Positions 22,395-28,243 are shown, counted from the first letter of the stretch. The stretch is 64,000 nt of DNA from Geoglobus acetivorans (GCF_039641995.1 NZ_CP087714.1:1-64000); one strand, 5' to 3'. The notes: a model not told the origin generated them from the letters alone. Numbers and translations: made by a program.

Positions 22395-23345
22395 GTGGTG
22401 CAGGTGAACCTCCTGAGCAAAAATGAATTGATGAAAAAATACGGAGAAATTCCGTGGATCTCGCCCTACAGAAAGCTTGTAGCAATGACAGATGGAGAGT
22501 TTATCGAGCTTCACGAGTATCATGCGAGGGGAAAGTGCATAGGGGGTGCAGCATGGGAGACTTACCACTATCCGAGAGTGAGCGACTTAATAATATCTGC
22601 AAGAAGAGAGGGTGCGAGAAACATTTTCGTACTTAAAAAAGGTGAGACAAAGCTAAAACTGATACCCGGGATTGCCGGAGCCGGAATTGAGTCAGCCACA
22701 ATCAAAAAAGACAGTATAGAGATAACATACTCGGGTCTTGCCGGCGGCGGGATAGCTGCAACGGTTTGCAGGGGTCTCGCCGAGGGGGTTGACGGTATTG
22801 AAATCATCAACCTCGGAGGTGGGGCTGAACTTGGCAGAGCAAAAATAAGGTTAAAACCTCACAGAAAGGTTGTCATAGGCATCGATGACACGGACAGCCG
22901 GGAAGGGGGCGCCACGTGGGCGCTTGCAAATGAGATAGCACACGCAATCGAGAAGAAAGGGCTCGGTCATTACCTGTCCCATGCAATCGTGCAGCTCTAC
23001 ACCAAGACACCAGAGAAGACAACAAACTGCGTTTCAATTGCAGTAACATTTGCAACAGAAAGTAAGGAAAAGCTCGTATCCGAATTCGCCACACGGCTCA
23101 GGGAGACTACGCTCAGCGATGAAACCGCCATGGCTGTGTGGGATAGAGTTCTCATCCCGGACGAGTTGAAGAGATACGCGAAGGATGCAAAAAGCAGGGT
23201 GGTACAGATTGAAGAGGCCATGAAGGTCGCAGAGAGGCTGGGCATTCAGGTGGTGGAGATAACTGGCGAAAGAGGCGTGATAGGAGCGATGGCATCGCTT
23301 GGTTTTGCAGACAATCCAGACGAGGCTGTGATGGTTTATGCTTGA
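22395..23345 (+). CDS. Methanogenesis marker protein 11 family (TiaS-like domain)
   Basis: A 316-residue protein I match to methanogenesis marker protein 11, a family almost confined to methanogens and relatives. A glycine-rich middle (GIAGAGIESA, SGLAGGGIAATV) precedes IGIDDTDSREGG near residue 160, the nucleotide-binding motif shared with the tRNA-Ile2 agmatidine synthetase TiaS. The biochemical role is unknown. GTG codons at 22395, 22398 and 22404 are all possible starts; a TATA-like GTAAAAATAAG lies about 30 bases before the first. The stop overlaps the radical SAM gene by 8 bases, so the pair is co-translated. Confidence 0.75.
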   Translation: MVQVNLLSKNELMKKYGEIPWISPYRKLVAMTDGEFIELHEYHARGKCIGGAAWETYHYPRVSDLIISARREGARNIFVLKKGETKLKLIPGIAGAGIESATIKKDSIEITYSGLAGGGIAATVCRGLAEGVDGIEIINLGGGAELGRAKIRLKPHRKVVIGIDDTDSREGGATWALANEIAHAIEKKGLGHYLSHAIVQLYTKTPEKTTNCVSIAVTFATESKEKLVSEFATRLRETTLSDETAMAVWDRVLIPDELKRYAKDAKSRVVQIEEAMKVAERLGIQVVEITGERGVIGAMASLGFADNPDEAVMVYA

Positions 23346-24372
23346 TCCCGAACTGAAACTGAAGCTTCTCATTCTCGGAGTGAGAAGTCCGAGAGGTCCG
23401 CTTAGGAAAGGCGGCGGTGGACCGAACGGAGGAGTTGGATTCAAAGTGGAGAAATCAGTAGTGTCGGCACCGGTACGGCAGAAATATGCTCGAAATTCGC
23501 CATTCAAAATCGTACAGGAGGGTGGAAAATACATCCTTTACGAGCTTGAAAACAGAATAGGTTATGTGGAGTACCCGGAGCCGGACTACTACGGCACAGT
23601 TGTCGGAGGTGTTCCTGCAGAGAGGTATGTTGCTCTGGACGGATACGACACCCTCGTTTCTGCTATCTCAAGAAAATGCATCCACTGGGAGCTCGGTAAA
23701 AAATGTTCATTCTGTAACATTCAGAAGGGGCTTAAAGACGCCATAGACGTGAAAAACCCGGAATTGCTGGCTCAGGCTGTAAAAATAGCCCACGAAAAGG
23801 ACAGGAGAAGGCACCTCACACTAACAACGGGAACCGTGAACACGACAGGCAGGGGCGCCGAACTTCTCGCAACGGCGGTTAAAGCAATAAAAAAGGAGGC
23901 AGATATCCCGGTCCATGTCCAAATAGAGCCTGTGGACCGGTACTGGATAGAGAGACTGTATGAAAGCGGTGCAGACACGATCGGGATACATGTTGAAGTG
24001 TTTGACAAGGAGATCAGATCAAAAGTCATTCCGGGGAAACCCTCCCTGGACAGATACTTTGATGCATGGAAAATTGCCGTTGATGTGTTCGGAGAGTGGA
24101 ATGTCTCGTCATGGCTCCTGACCGGACTCGGAGAAAGGCCAGACAGTGTAACCAGAGGTCTGGAGACAATGCTCAGCATGACAGTTTACCCGTTCATCGC
24201 CCCTTACAGACCCCCACCCGGAGCAGACCGCGAGCCTCCAGACCTGAATTACCACACAAATCTGCTTGAAAAAGTAGAGGAAACATTAAGTGATCTGCAG
24301 ATTGTTCCAGCAGAGTTTAAATCCGGATGTCCCAGGTGTGGTGGCTGCTCGTTTATTCCTGAATTGCTATAA
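23338..24372 (+). CDS. Radical SAM protein (MSMEG_0568-like)
   Basis: A 344-residue radical S-adenosylmethionine enzyme. The cluster motif is the unusual C-x8-C-x2-C (CIHWELGKKCSFC, about residues 112-124), followed by a TIM-barrel-like core with TTGTVNTTGRG. A GGGGPNGG segment precedes the radical SAM core, as in the MSMEG_0568 family. The C-terminus CPRCGGC may hold another metal. The reaction is unknown. It overlaps the marker-11 gene, so the two probably act together, perhaps in cofactor or peptide modification; that is inference. A T-rich tract follows the stop. Confidence 0.75.
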   Translation: MLDPELKLKLLILGVRSPRGPLRKGGGGPNGGVGFKVEKSVVSAPVRQKYARNSPFKIVQEGGKYILYELENRIGYVEYPEPDYYGTVVGGVPAERYVALDGYDTLVSAISRKCIHWELGKKCSFCNIQKGLKDAIDVKNPELLAQAVKIAHEKDRRRHLTLTTGTVNTTGRGAELLATAVKAIKKEADIPVHVQIEPVDRYWIERLYESGADTIGIHVEVFDKEIRSKVIPGKPSLDRYFDAWKIAVDVFGEWNVSSWLLTGLGERPDSVTRGLETMLSMTVYPFIAPYRPPPGADREPPDLNYHTNLLEKVEETLSDLQIVPAEFKSGCPRCGGCSFIPELL

Positions 24373-25086
24373 ACTTTAAACCCTTCTTTTTGCCGGACCA
24401 TTAACACTCACATCATGACTCACATCTCACCAAATCAATAAATTTTTAATAAATTTTATATTAAATCCTTTTAATTTAAATGATGAAAATATTAAATATT
24501 AAATTAAAATGTAAAATATTTTACTGATTAAATTTATTTCATTAAATCATTTCATTAAAATTTAATAATTTTAAATATATCTAATAGACAATACAACTTA
24601 GGTTTTTTAAATTAAATTTTCTGAATAAAATTGTTCCACAATTAGTGGAATAGAAATAAATTAGGCGACCCTAAAAATGCGGATTTAGGGAGATCGGTTG
24701 TTCCAAAATATATGTGAATACGGGGTATACGGTGTGTTCAAGGGGGGGTAACTGCACAAACCATCTGGAGTCGTGAAAAAATGGGTGAAGTGAGGATCAT
24801 TTGTTACAAAATTTTTGGAATTGCATATTTTGCGAAGTGAGATTAATATTAATAAAATTATTTATTTAGTTTAATTCTTGAAATTTAATAATTGCGACTG
24901 TTTAGTATATTCAAAAACAAAAACATTAAAATCAATATATTTTAAATTTTTATTAAATTAATTCTAAAAAAATAATTAATTTAGTCAATTTAATAAAAAT
25001 AGAAGCGATAAAATAACCGGTGAAAATTGTGAGTATTAAACGTGGAAGGATAAAAAAGAAAAAATTAAAATCAGTTCATAAAAGAT
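24373..25086. other. 714-base AT-rich gene-free region with a GC-richer island
   Basis: Both flanks are almost pure A/T with many TTAAAT and AATTTA words. An island at about 24630-24840 is richer in G/C. It holds hairpin TTCCAC-5-GTGGAA (24634-24650), hairpin CCCTAAA-8-TTTAGGG (24669-24690), two TTGTTCCA words (24631 and 24708) and a run of seven G (24742-24748). A 19-codon ORF (24781-24840) is preceded by a weak Shine-Dalgarno-like GGAG. Candidates are a structured RNA, an unlinked replication origin or a regulatory region for the coenzyme M operon. No long ORF is present. Confidence 0.6.
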
Positions 25087-26280
25087 ATGGAATCAATGAA
25101 ATATGCTCTTCACTGCCCGATGTGTGGCAGGCAGTTCAGAGATAATGGATTTACGCTCAGATGCCCAGATGGTTGCAATTCCATCGTGAGAACAACATAT
25201 TTTGATAAACTCAGGCCTCAGGGTGTTGGTTTGTGGAGATACATCAACCACCTCCCGGTCAGATCCCCGCTCAGCTATGGGGATTACCCGGCCATCCTGA
25301 AAAGTGAGGAGTATTCATCAATGTACGAGAGCGAGATATACCTTATCATCAACGGATACTCTCCAGACTTCAATGTGAGAATGAAAACGTGTACGTTCAA
25401 GGAGATTGAAGCAATTGTTTCGTTAAAATATGCTGAGGAGTGGGGAAAGAACATAACCCTTGCATCTGTGGGCAATACGGCAACAGCGTTTCTCGAGCTT
25501 GGAAAGTACGTTGAAGATACAAGTGTTGTGCTGTTTGTCCCCGAAAAAGTGTTTGACTGTACATTCGAAATAGAGAGAAGCGAAAATGTGAGTCTTGTCA
25601 TGGTGAAAGGCGGGTACAGCAGAGCCACAGAACTCGCACAGAGATTTGCACGCGCAAGAGATGGCTGGGAATATGAAGGCGGGGGCCTGAATTTTGCGAG
25701 GCGTGATGGACTTGCAACTTTTGCGTATGCGTTTTTCGAGAGGTTTGGATTTGTCCCCGACATGTATGTCCAGGCTGTCGGTAGCGGCACTGGAGTGATC
25801 GCATTTTATGAGGGTATGAAGCGCCTTGGAGTGATGCCGCCTTCCATGGTCATCGCACAGAATTCACCATTCACACCGATAGTCGATTCATGGTTGCAGA
25901 GGACTGAGAAAATTCCAGAGTATCCATTCGATCCCCTTGAAGCAATTTACGCCAAGGTGCTTTCCAACAAAAAACCACTTTACGAACATAAAGGAGGTTT
26001 GTTTGACATTCTGACAGAGACGAAAGGCCAGGCAGTATCCATTACGGACAGTGAGGCAAAAAAAGCAGGGAAGCTCTTTAAAAAGACCTGTGGATTTTCA
26101 CTATTCCCTGCCGCAGAGGTGGCCATGGCGGTTTTGGACAAAATTGACCTGAACGGTAAAAGAATACTGATCAACATAACAGGCTCAGGACTGGACAACC
26201 TGAAAAAGGATTTTAAAGTAAGAAAACCAAAGCCCGATTACGTTGTTGAAGGTGAAGAGGATCTGGAGATGATTGAATGA
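25087..26280 (+). CDS. Cysteate synthase (threonine-synthase-like, PLP)
   Basis: PLP enzyme of 397 residues that matches Methanosarcinales-type cysteate synthase, which makes L-cysteate from O-phosphoserine and sulfite as an early step to coenzyme M. An N-terminal zinc-ribbon-like pattern (C10, C13, C26, C30) is followed by the PLP lysine in KTCTFKEIEA (K105) and the phosphate-loop region ASVGNTATA near 126-134. Threonine synthase is the main alternative, but the K-T-C-T-F-K-E context and the downstream sulfopyruvate decarboxylase favour cysteate synthase. It overlaps the next gene by 4 bases. The upstream region is extremely A/T rich. Confidence 0.83.
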   Translation: MESMKYALHCPMCGRQFRDNGFTLRCPDGCNSIVRTTYFDKLRPQGVGLWRYINHLPVRSPLSYGDYPAILKSEEYSSMYESEIYLIINGYSPDFNVRMKTCTFKEIEAIVSLKYAEEWGKNITLASVGNTATAFLELGKYVEDTSVVLFVPEKVFDCTFEIERSENVSLVMVKGGYSRATELAQRFARARDGWEYEGGGLNFARRDGLATFAYAFFERFGFVPDMYVQAVGSGTGVIAFYEGMKRLGVMPPSMVIAQNSPFTPIVDSWLQRTEKIPEYPFDPLEAIYAKVLSNKKPLYEHKGGLFDILTETKGQAVSITDSEAKKAGKLFKKTCGFSLFPAAEVAMAVLDKIDLNGKRILINITGSGLDNLKKDFKVRKPKPDYVVEGEEDLEMIE

Positions 26281-27362
26281 TCGAGGATGAGGTCATAGAT
26301 AGAATTAAGTCTGCCGGTATCACCCACACTCTGTTTCTGCCATGTGAAAGAATAAAACTTCTGATTTCAAAGCTTCAGGATAATTTCAAATCCGTTCCCC
26401 TTTCGAGAGAGGAAGAAGGTGTGGGAATCTCAGCGGGACTCTATCTCGCAGGTCAGAAACCGCTGATGGTTATTCAGTCTTCAGGATTCGGAAACATGGT
26501 AAATGCTCTTTTAAGCCTTACAGAAACTTACAGACTTCCACTCCCGATACTCATAAGCTGGAGAGGTGTGTTCGGTGAGAAAATTGACGCACAAAAACCC
26601 ATGGGCAGAAAAATCAGGAGCATGCTGAATGCACTCGGCATCCATTATACTGTTTTCGATGGCAACAACTCTGAAGACATTGAAAACACAATCTCCACAG
26701 CTTACGAGGAAAATAAGATTACAGCAATTCTGCTCAGACCGGATGTCTGGAGCATGGGTGAAGACCTTGCTTTTGAACCGAGAAGTTTCGAAACCAGGAA
26801 ATTCGAAGTGCCTGGAGGAAAAGCCAGATACACCAGATACGAACTGATACAGGGAATGAAAGAGTTTCTGGAGGGAAAGATAGTTGTTTCAAACATAGGA
26901 TATCCAAGCAGAGAGCTATACCATGTGATTGACCAGCCCTCGAACTTTTACATGCTCGGCAGCATGGGTCTTGCAACTTCAATAGCCCTCGGGATAAACC
27001 TGACAGGCAAAGAGGTGATATCCATTGACGGAGACGGCTCGATTCTGATGAATCCCTCAACGATATTCACCGCAGGGCTCCTTTCAGAGGAGGGGTTGAA
27101 GGTGATAGCAATTGATAATTCTGCATACGGTAGCACGGGAAACCAGACCACCGCCACGATCAGGGCAGATCTTTCGCTCCTCGGAATTTCGGCTGGACTC
27201 GAAACATTCAGAACCGTAACGCCCGATCAAATCACCTTACATGCCTCCAGACCGGAATCCATGTTTATTCATGCTCTTGCAAAACCCGGAAACGCCAGAG
27301 TTGGGACAATTCCACTCAGCCCTGAGGAGATACGGGACAGATTCATGGAGGCGATAAAGTGA
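26277..27362 (+). CDS. comDE: Sulfopyruvate decarboxylase, fused alpha and beta subunits
   Basis: Thiamine-diphosphate enzyme that decarboxylates sulfopyruvate to sulfoacetaldehyde in coenzyme M synthesis. The N-terminal half (about 1-165) is the ComD PYR domain, with SREEEGVGISAGLYLAG providing the catalytic Glu region. The C-terminal half (about 185-361) is the ComE PP domain, with GDGSILMN near 251 and ending in AIDN as the TPP/Mg motif. Class I methanogens such as Methanocaldococcus have separate comD and comE; a single fused gene is the Methanosarcinales arrangement. It overlaps both flanking genes by 4 bases. Confidence 0.88.
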   Translation: MIEDEVIDRIKSAGITHTLFLPCERIKLLISKLQDNFKSVPLSREEEGVGISAGLYLAGQKPLMVIQSSGFGNMVNALLSLTETYRLPLPILISWRGVFGEKIDAQKPMGRKIRSMLNALGIHYTVFDGNNSEDIENTISTAYEENKITAILLRPDVWSMGEDLAFEPRSFETRKFEVPGGKARYTRYELIQGMKEFLEGKIVVSNIGYPSRELYHVIDQPSNFYMLGSMGLATSIALGINLTGKEVISIDGDGSILMNPSTIFTAGLLSEEGLKVIAIDNSAYGSTGNQTTATIRADLSLLGISAGLETFRTVTPDQITLHASRPESMFIHALAKPGNARVGTIPLSPEEIRDRFMEAIK

Positions 27363-28243
27363 GGATCGGTTATCTGTCCACACTTTACCACACGTCGCAC
27401 ATGCTAAAAGCAAAGGGACTCGTCAGAGCAGAGTGGAAAATATATGGCACAGGGATGGAGATTGTAAAGGCTCTTGAAGAGAAAAGGATAGACCTTGCAT
27501 ACGTGGGACTCACTCCCGTGATTTTCGCAATCGATAAGGGTGTTGACATATTCTGCATCTCAGGTGGACACGTGGAGGGGACTGTCATTGCCGGAAGGTT
27601 CGAGGGCAGATTTCCGGATTGCCTCGAGAGTAAAAAAATAGGAGTCCCTGCGAGGGGGAGCATACACGACGTCATACTGAGAAGTTACCTCGCAGAGCTT
27701 GACTTCCAAGTGGTCAACTACCCCTGGGCCGAGATGATTCTCGATGACTTTGCGGAAGGTAAGCTCGATGGCGTATGCGGGACACCCAACCTCGCAATAC
27801 TGGCCAAGAGGTATGGAGCGGTGATTTGCGGCAGACCTTCAGATATATGGCCCTGGAACCCGAGCTATGGTATCGCTGTGAGAAGAGACTTTTTTGAAGA
27901 GAGCTGCGACACATTGAGAGAGTTCCTCATAAAGCATGAGTGGGCAACCAACATCCTGAGGGAGGCCGTGGATTACTCAGGAGCATTTCTTGAAAACTAC
28001 ATAAGAGGAGAACTGGATCATCTGACGATAAAAGATATGCTCACTCTGAGTCCAAAGTATTGTGCCTCCCTACCGGACGAGTACGTGAGCAGCACGCAGA
28101 CTCTTGCTGCACTCATGAAAAAGCTCGGATATGTCGAAAACAGCCTTAAAAAGTCAGATGTGTTTAACTTCGATTTGATTTCTGAAGTGCATCCCCAAAG
28201 AGAACATTACTCCGTATGGAAAAACGGGAAAACGGAAAAATAA
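27359..28243 (+). CDS. Solute-binding-fold (NMT1/SsuA-like) protein, no signal peptide
   Basis: A 294-residue protein with the type-2 periplasmic-binding fold of the NMT1/THI5/SsuA group: GYLSTLYHTSHML, GMEIVKALEEKRIDLAYVG and PARGSIHDVILRSYL align with the substrate-cleft segments. No signal peptide or lipobox exists and no ABC permease or ATPase is adjacent, so it is likely cytoplasmic. Enzymes such as THI5 and MqnA/MqnD use this fold. Its overlap with comDE suggests a step in coenzyme M synthesis, such as handling sulfoacetaldehyde or a sulfur donor; alternatively it is a sulfonate-binding regulator. The GTG at 27359 starts within the comDE stop region. Confidence 0.65.
   Translation: MRIGYLSTLYHTSHMLKAKGLVRAEWKIYGTGMEIVKALEEKRIDLAYVGLTPVIFAIDKGVDIFCISGGHVEGTVIAGRFEGRFPDCLESKKIGVPARGSIHDVILRSYLAELDFQVVNYPWAEMILDDFAEGKLDGVCGTPNLAILAKRYGAVICGRPSDIWPWNPSYGIAVRRDFFEESCDTLREFLIKHEWATNILREAVDYSGAFLENYIRGELDHLTIKDMLTLSPKYCASLPDEYVSSTQTLAALMKKLGYVENSLKKSDVFNFDLISEVHPQREHYSVWKNGKTEK

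What the first reader, a model, noticed from the sequence alone, without database searches (positions are those of the whole stretch)
25087..28243. Apparent coenzyme M biosynthesis operon in an Archaeoglobales-like genome
Three genes joined by 4-base overlaps encode cysteate synthase, fused sulfopyruvate decarboxylase and a solute-binding-fold protein. Cysteate synthase plus ComDE is the Methanosarcinales route to coenzyme M. The rest of the window reads as Archaeoglobales, whose best-known members lack methyl-coenzyme M reductase. The host may be an mcr-bearing lineage, may keep coenzyme M for another use such as alkyl or disulfide carriers, or may make a related sulfonate.
Basis: partly seen in the sequence, partly recalled or inferred. 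Interest (0 to 1): 0.78.

Follow-up and report, generated by a model that had tools for sequence, protein, structure and literature searches.

The report
Coenzyme M operon without methane genes
An iron-reducing archaeon that cannot make methane carries a compact operon for the methanogen cofactor coenzyme M, and its third gene belongs to an unrecognised protein family that tracks this pathway across archaea and some bacteria and may perform the last, poorly understood step.

Summary
Three genes joined by 4-base overlaps encode a divergent cysteate synthase (CS), a fused sulfopyruvate decarboxylase (ComDE) and a cytosolic sulfonate-binding-fold protein (here "SBP"). The host is a Geoglobus-type archaeon with a complete 1.90 Mb genome and no mcrA, so the MCR-bearing alternative is rejected. 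Trees place both enzymes with CS and ComDE, apart from threonine synthase and phosphonopyruvate decarboxylase.

What is new is the third gene. Methanosarcina acetivorans has MMP16, the CoM synthase, beside cs-comDE. No Archaeoglobi genome has MMP16. The SBP family has two near-invariant cysteines. It occurs in all 11 ComDE-bearing Archaeoglobi and 4 of 48 others, and 36 of 38 SBP-bearing relatives elsewhere in the phylum have CS. Thirteen CS-bearing methanogen-clade genomes lack MMP16 and all carry SBP; one of 28 SBP-less genomes lacks it. Most SBP-bearing Nitrospirota also encode CS, in an HdrE-HdrD-CS-comDE operon.

Best reading: CoM is made from phosphoserine and sulfite, with SBP as a non-homologous CoM synthase. 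Pathway identity is strong. The SBP role is inferred, not significant under a phylogeny-controlled test, and rivalled by a role in sulfur supply. No CoM measurement exists.

The parts
25087..26280 (+). Divergent cysteate synthase (CS), PLP enzyme; phosphoserine + sulfite -> cysteate (function inferred)
   Evidence: TIGR03844 E 1.8e-82; PDB 9k3c cysteate synthase E 8.2e-58; inside CS clade, 100/100 branch from ThrC; 28 CS-only columns and PLP Lys105 kept
26277..27362 (+). Fused sulfopyruvate decarboxylase ComDE (alpha 3-158, beta 187-361), TPP enzyme; sulfopyruvate -> sulfoacetaldehyde (function inferred)
   Evidence: TIGR03845 over cut-off, TIGR03846 E 2.5e-57; GDGS...DN TPP region invariant in 11 relatives; groups with ComDE, apart from AepY
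27359..28243 (+). Cytosolic SsuA/TauA-fold protein ('SBP family'); candidate non-homologous CoM synthase
   Evidence: no signal peptide, first strand begins at residue 2; model pLDDT 94.7, best folds SsuA/TauA, also MqnD and Thi5; C66, C235, H71, H103, E73, W26, Y48 97-100% conserved in 64 diverse members; phyletic link to CS/ComDE and to MMP16 loss
24373..25086 (.). AT-rich (about 23% G+C) 714-bp intergenic region upstream of CS with a core (about 24660-24770) conserved across four Geoglobus genomes; promoter/regulatory region or possible replication origin, membership in the operon unknown
   Evidence: no Rfam match
22395..24372 (+). Conserved upstream neighbours: methanogenesis marker protein 11 (22395-23345) and variant radical SAM protein (23338-24372); same strand but separated by 714 bp; link to the operon uncertain
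   Evidence: TIGR03280 345 bits over cut-off and NF045502 over cut-off; order kept in G. acetivorans-, G. ahangari- and UBA235-type genomes

Best explanation
The operon makes coenzyme M (2-mercaptoethanesulfonate) by the cysteate route in an MCR-less Geoglobus. CS turns O-phosphoserine and sulfite into cysteate, a general aspartate-type aminotransferase gives sulfopyruvate, and ComDE decarboxylates it to sulfoacetaldehyde (inferred from strong orthology). The SBP-fold protein then most likely binds sulfoacetaldehyde in its ancestral sulfonate pocket and replaces the aldehyde by a thiol. Its conserved pair C66/C235 would carry sulfur or supply the two electrons, with sulfide or a sulfur-carrier protein as donor, so that it substitutes for MMP16/ComF (inferred, not shown). 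The product is probably used as a redox thiol or methyl carrier and not for methane.
For: CS and ComDE identity by profile, tree and residues. No ComA, no MMP16 over cut-off and no mcrA in the own genome. M. acetivorans has cs-comDE-MMP16 side by side (MA3297-3299; PMC12068725; L238), and Geoglobus has the SBP gene in that position. All 11 ComDE-bearing Archaeoglobi have SBP, against 4 of 48 others (Fisher 5e-9). Outside Archaeoglobi in 334 genomes, 36 of 38 SBP-bearing genomes have CS (Fisher 1e-9). Among CS-bearing genomes MMP16 is missing in 13 of 36 with SBP and in 1 of 28 without (p 0.002); on the CS tree these are 4 changes, all in SBP-bearing clades. CS and SBP coordinates were both listed for 12 of the MMP16-less genomes, and SBP lies within 3 kb of CS in 6 of them (0.2 kb in G385); it does so in none of 19 genomes with both SBP and MMP16 (coordinates). 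G075, whose length equals Methanocella paludicola (2,957,635 bp; PMC3146512), keeps CS and ComDE, has SBP and lacks MMP16. 23 of 40 genomes outside the phylum's sample with SBP have CS over cut-off, nearly all Nitrospirota, and none of the CS-bearing ones tested among them has MMP16. SBP-CS-ComDE clusters also occur in Hydrothermarchaeota, Hecatella and Nitrospirota. The fold is that of alkanesulfonate binders and of the cytosolic biosynthetic enzymes MqnD and Thi5. In other archaea SBP lies beside ThiS, ThiF, TusA, IscU or sulfite reductase genes, which fits a sulfur-inserting enzyme.
Against: The MMP16 association is not significant when phylogeny is controlled: 1-2 concordant independent pairs, 0 discordant, 6-7 uninformative. 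23 genomes carry both proteins. Many SBP genes lie with sulfate-assimilation genes, which fits a sulfite or sulfide supply role as well. Some SBP-bearing genomes lack CS (Asgard, deltaproteobacterial and other lineages), and three mcr-bearing Archaeoglobi have SBP without CS or ComDE. Geoglobus has L-ASST (HcyBio+CBS with a NIL-ferredoxin), which may stand in for MMP16 (PMC12068725). From memory, not verified here: Methanoregula boonei, whose genome length matches G108 (CS+, SBP+, MMP16-), is described as requiring CoM for growth. CS and the ComE part score below curated cut-offs. No CoM has been measured in Geoglobus.
Confidence: 0.45

Rival explanations
1. The operon makes CoM, but the SBP-fold protein works in sulfur supply: it binds or channels sulfite (or sulfide) from assimilatory sulfate reduction to cysteate synthase, and L-ASST or uncatalysed sulfide addition performs the last step.
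For: SBP genes lie by CysN/CysD-type, sulfite reductase, ThiS/ThiF and TusA genes in several archaea; CS consumes sulfite; M. paludicola and relatives have an assimilatory sulfate reduction pathway (PMC3146512); Geoglobus has L-ASST, and M. acetivorans lacking MMP16 still grows when sulfide is present (PMC12068725).
Against: Does not explain why MMP16 is lost almost only in SBP-bearing genomes or why SBP moves next to CS-ComDE in MMP16-less ones; does not explain SBP with ComDE but no CS in L098 and L141.
Confidence: 0.27
2. CS and ComDE make sulfoacetaldehyde, but the end product is another sulfonate (for example taurine, isethionate or a new mercapto-sulfonate), and SBP acts on that product in MCR-less hosts.
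For: No mcrA, no MMP16 and no known CoM-dependent enzyme was shown in the host; CS is a divergent sister clade to methanogen CS.
Against: The same SBP family accompanies CS and ComDE in methanogens that need CoM, some without MMP16; Nitrospirota couple CS-ComDE with HdrDE-like genes, which suggests a thiol/disulfide product.
Confidence: 0.13
3. The genes are a decaying remnant of a methanogenic ancestor with no present function.
For: Archaeoglobi are thought to descend from methanogens (PMC4600277, PMC7380581); methanogenesis marker 11 lies upstream.
Against: Open frames, overlapping gene structure and 60-94% protein identity kept across Geoglobus, Ferroglobus and deeper Archaeoglobi; 28 CS-specific residues kept.
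Confidence: 0.05

Closest known systems
Methanosarcina acetivorans cs-comDE-MMP16 locus (MA3297-MA3298-MA3299)
   Same: Cysteate synthase followed by fused ComDE; a third CoM gene close by (PMC12068725; L238)
   Different: Third gene is an SBP-fold protein with no homology to MMP16; host lacks MCR; CS only 34% identical
MMP16 / ComF CoM synthase (COG1900)
   Same: Proposed reaction (sulfoacetaldehyde to CoM) and genomic position
   Different: Unrelated fold and sequence; MMP16 is a COG1900 + ferredoxin metalloprotein, SBP is a type II binding-protein fold with two conserved Cys
SsuA / TauA periplasmic alkanesulfonate-binding proteins
   Same: Fold (TM-score 0.73-0.80) and several pocket segments
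   Different: No signal peptide, no ABC transporter genes beside it, invariant Cys/His set, operon with biosynthetic enzymes
MqnA/MqnD and Thi5 (cytosolic SBP-fold biosynthetic enzymes)
   Same: Precedent for SBP-fold proteins turned into cofactor-biosynthesis enzymes (2czl, 4h67/4h6d)
   Different: Different pathway and conserved residues; sequence identity 14-18%
Bacterial CoM pathway (Xanthobacter XcbB1-E1; from memory)
   Same: CoM made in organisms without MCR
   Different: Different chemistry and enzymes (PEP + sulfite start); here the archaeal cysteate route

Membership tests
Cysteate synthase (TIGR03844) | profile score over curated cut-off 324.9 | tested here: not met
   277.2 bits; relatives G031, G056, G057 have E 7e-105 to 2e-109 against 1e-82 here, so orthology is gradual
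Cysteate synthase (TIGR03844) | groups with cysteate synthases, not threonine synthases | tested here: met
   51 CS in one clade, 100/100, long branch from 7 ThrC
Cysteate synthase (TIGR03844) | PLP lysine and CS-specific residues | tested here: met
   K105 aligned in all; 28 columns conserved in Archaeoglobi and other CS but not ThrC
Cysteate synthase (TIGR03844) | makes cysteate from phosphoserine and sulfite | not testable with these tools
   needs enzyme assay
Sulfopyruvate decarboxylase ComDE | alpha domain over TIGR03845 cut-off | tested here: met
   179.9 bits vs 147.95
Sulfopyruvate decarboxylase ComDE | beta domain over TIGR03846 cut-off | tested here: not met
   193.7 vs 221.5 bits, full-length match
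Sulfopyruvate decarboxylase ComDE | groups with ComDE, not phosphonopyruvate decarboxylase | tested here: met
   AepY separated by 100/100 branch
Archaeal CoM pathway as in Methanosarcina | MMP16/ComF present | tested here: not met
   no match over cut-off in 59 Archaeoglobi; best own hit is L-ASST
Archaeal CoM pathway as in Methanosarcina | CoM present in cells | not testable with these tools
   needs LC-MS
Periplasmic sulfonate-binding protein (SsuA/TauA) | type II binding-protein fold | tested here: met
   AlphaFold pLDDT 94.7; Foldseek E down to 9e-17
Periplasmic sulfonate-binding protein (SsuA/TauA) | signal peptide and ABC transporter partner genes | tested here: not met
   chain starts at first strand; no recurrent transporter gene family among the neighbour clusters examined in 80 loci
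CoM synthase (proposed role of SBP) | phyletic complementarity with MMP16 | tested here: inconclusive
   13/36 vs 1/28 without MMP16, p 0.002 uncorrected; not significant on the tree

The most novel reading that the evidence does not exclude
The third gene founds a new class of coenzyme M synthase built on a sulfonate-binding-protein fold, non-homologous to MMP16. It lets MCR-less archaea and Nitrospirota bacteria make CoM by the archaeal cysteate route and use it with HdrDE-type disulfide reductases, so CoM would be a wider redox or methyl carrier unconnected to methane.
Probability: 0.35. Interest if true: 0.9.

Novelty: new variant of a known kind. Interest (0 to 1): 0.72.

Why it matters
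CoM is regarded as the signature cofactor of methane and alkane archaea plus a few alkene-oxidising bacteria. A complete-looking cysteate-route operon in MCR-less iron reducers, and a conserved HdrE-HdrD-CS-ComDE operon in Nitrospirota, would make CoM a broader thiol carrier and bear on how methanogenesis was lost. The last step of CoM synthesis has been disputed. A second, unrelated enzyme family that appears to stand in for MMP16 in cultured methanogens such as Methanocella paludicola makes the question directly testable by complementation.

Tried and rejected
MCR-bearing host: rejected, no mcrA in the 99.98% complete genome. ComABC route: no ComA. Threonine synthase or phosphonopyruvate decarboxylase identity: rejected by trees. 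Ordinary ABC-transporter binding protein: rejected (no signal peptide, no transporter genes in the operon). A three-cysteine Fe-S site from C66, C140 and C235, suggested by the Archaeoglobi alignment: dropped, because C140 is not conserved in the wider family. MMP16 as own-genome homologue: the COG1900 hit is L-ASST with CBS domains. CoM users in the own genome: the HdrD/TfrB profile gave only sub-cut-off hits in all Archaeoglobi, including a GlcF-type one, so no CoM-dependent enzyme was established. Literature searches found no prior report of the SBP link or of CoM genes in Nitrospirota; the library is open-access only. Coordinates of the model were not available, so the C66-C235 distance could not be measured.

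Full report
OBSERVATION. The three + strand ORFs 25087-26280, 26277-27362 and 27359-28243 exist and overlap by 4 bases twice. The best family models are cysteate synthase, ComD+ComE fused in one chain, and SsuA-type sulfonate-binding protein. The same order and overlaps recur in other Geoglobus genomes, and CS-ComDE-SBP also in deeper Archaeoglobi (G031, G056, G057); in Ferroglobus CS-ComDE (about 870 kb) and SBP (about 747 kb) lie apart. The window genome is one 1,903,522-base contig, 99.98% complete, with no mcrA. Its genus holds contigs of 1,860,815 and 1,770,093 bp, lengths I recognise from memory as G. acetivorans and G. ahangari.

IDENTITY OF THE FIRST TWO ENZYMES. CS scores 277 bits, below the curated 325, so I did not rely on the profile. 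In a 58-sequence tree all CS (methanogens, Nitrospirota, Hydrothermarchaeota, Archaeoglobi) form one side of a 100/100 branch from seven threonine synthases; Archaeoglobi are a divergent group within CS. Twenty-eight columns are conserved in Archaeoglobi and other CS but not in ThrC, and the PLP lysine K105 is kept. The solved cysteate synthase 9k3c matches at 8e-58, against 9e-5 for the best threonine synthase. ComDE passes the alpha cut-off and groups with the M. acetivorans ComDE, apart from AepY phosphonopyruvate decarboxylases, by a 100/100 branch. In M. acetivorans cs and comDE deletions are CoM auxotrophs (PMC12068725). Function in Geoglobus is inferred from this orthology.

THE REST OF THE PATHWAY. 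ComA is absent, as expected for the cysteate route. MMP16, the CoM synthase of M. acetivorans encoded beside cs-comDE (PMC12068725; L238), has no match over cut-off in any of 59 Archaeoglobi. The only COG1900 protein of the window genome is L-ASST: HcyBio plus two CBS domains beside a NIL-ferredoxin. That enzyme may back up MMP16 (PMC12068725), so the last step is not necessarily missing without SBP.

THE THIRD GENE. The protein starts directly at its first strand. The model (pLDDT 94.7) has the fold of SsuA and TauA, and also matches the cytosolic enzymes MqnD and Thi5. In 64 diverse members C66 and C235 are 97-98% conserved and W26, Y48, H71, E73, H103, Y170, S231 and Y234 are invariant. This looks like an enzyme built on a sulfonate-binding pocket and not a transport protein.

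CO-OCCURRENCE. In Archaeoglobi 11 of 11 ComDE-bearing genomes have SBP, against 4 of 48 others (Fisher 5e-9). In 334 other genomes of the phylum 38 have SBP and 36 of these have CS over cut-off (1e-9). Of 40 genomes outside that sample reached by SBP, 23 have CS over cut-off, nearly all Nitrospirota. SBP is not required for the route, since M. acetivorans lacks it and has MMP16.

SBP AND MMP16. I tested 64 CS-bearing genomes of the phylum for MMP16. With SBP, 13 of 36 lack it; without SBP, 1 of 28 lacks it (G342, sister to two SBP-bearing MMP16-less genomes). Fisher p is 0.002. In one genus (g48) five SBP-bearing genomes lack MMP16, and the SBP-less G361 has it beside CS. For the 12 MMP16-less genomes with both coordinates listed, SBP lies within 3 kb of CS in 6; for 19 genomes with both proteins it does so in none. 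On a CS tree MMP16 state changes 4 times, always in SBP-bearing clades, but the independent-pairs test cannot reach significance. This is the main support for SBP as a replacement CoM synthase and also its main weakness.

RIVAL CONTEXT. Elsewhere SBP lies beside ThiS, ThiF, TusA, cysteine desulfurase/IscU, sulfite reductase and CysN/D-type genes, and methanogens with SBP include ones with assimilatory sulfate reduction (PMC3146512). A sulfite or sulfide supply role is therefore a serious rival; a ThiS partner would equally suit an enzyme that inserts sulfur. From memory, Methanoregula boonei (length match to G108) is described as needing CoM, which would count against an active SBP synthase; I could not verify this here.

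BEYOND THE WINDOW. At least 12 Nitrospirota loci carry HdrE-like, HdrD-like (two ferredoxin motifs, two CCG motifs), CS and ComDE genes in a row, often with RACo-type corrinoid activase and FolD upstream. SBP is elsewhere in these genomes, or beside ComDE in L098 and L107. None of the CS-bearing genomes tested outside the phylum's sample (most of them Nitrospirota) has MMP16. In mcr-bearing Archaeoglobi G050, G051 and G053 SBP follows a radical SAM gene; in L067 these follow MtrH and RACo genes, with no CS or ComDE in the genome. These contexts suggest CoM as a partner of disulfide reductases or corrinoid methyl transfer outside methanogenesis.

VERDICT. CS and ComDE identity: about 0.9. Operon makes CoM: about 0.7. 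SBP is the CoM synthase: about 0.35-0.45. I found no previous report of the SBP link or of CoM genes in Nitrospirota in the open-access library.

Noticed in passing
L304, L306-L313, L315, L316, L318, L319, L107 (Nitrospirota): Conserved bacterial gene row HdrE-like, HdrD-like (2 ferredoxin + 2 CCG motifs), cysteate synthase, fused ComDE, often with RACo-type corrinoid activase, DUF6951 and FolD upstream: archaeal-type CoM synthesis coupled to a heterodisulfide-reductase-like complex in bacteria.
   Followed up: partly
L067 2407-9563 (G051); also L068, L069: In mcr-bearing Archaeoglobi without CS or ComDE, the SBP gene directly follows a variant radical SAM gene (NF045502); in L067 they lie in a cluster with a URO-D-type methyltransferase, MFS transporter, MtrH and RACo corrinoid activase.
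   Followed up: partly
window 24373-25086: AT-rich intergenic region whose core (about 24660-24770, with GTTCAAGGGGGGGTAACT) is conserved across four Geoglobus genomes although flanking DNA diverges; no Rfam match; could be a replication origin or regulatory element.
   Followed up: partly
window 22395-24372: Methanogenesis marker protein 11 (over cut-off) and a variant radical SAM protein in tandem in a non-methanogen, conserved in Geoglobus next to the CoM operon.
   Followed up: no
L150, L153, L154, L160, L100, L130: A small ThiS/MoaD-like gene directly precedes the SBP gene in several archaea, with ThiF, TusA, sulfite reductase or CysN/D-type genes nearby: possible thiocarboxylate sulfur donor.
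   Followed up: partly
L239 3372-5949 (window genome 1,886,000-1,897,000): L-ASST pair (HcyBio-CBS plus NIL-ferredoxin) with a 256-aa gene directly downstream (no Pfam match): homocysteine synthesis genes that could also back up CoM synthesis.
   Followed up: yes
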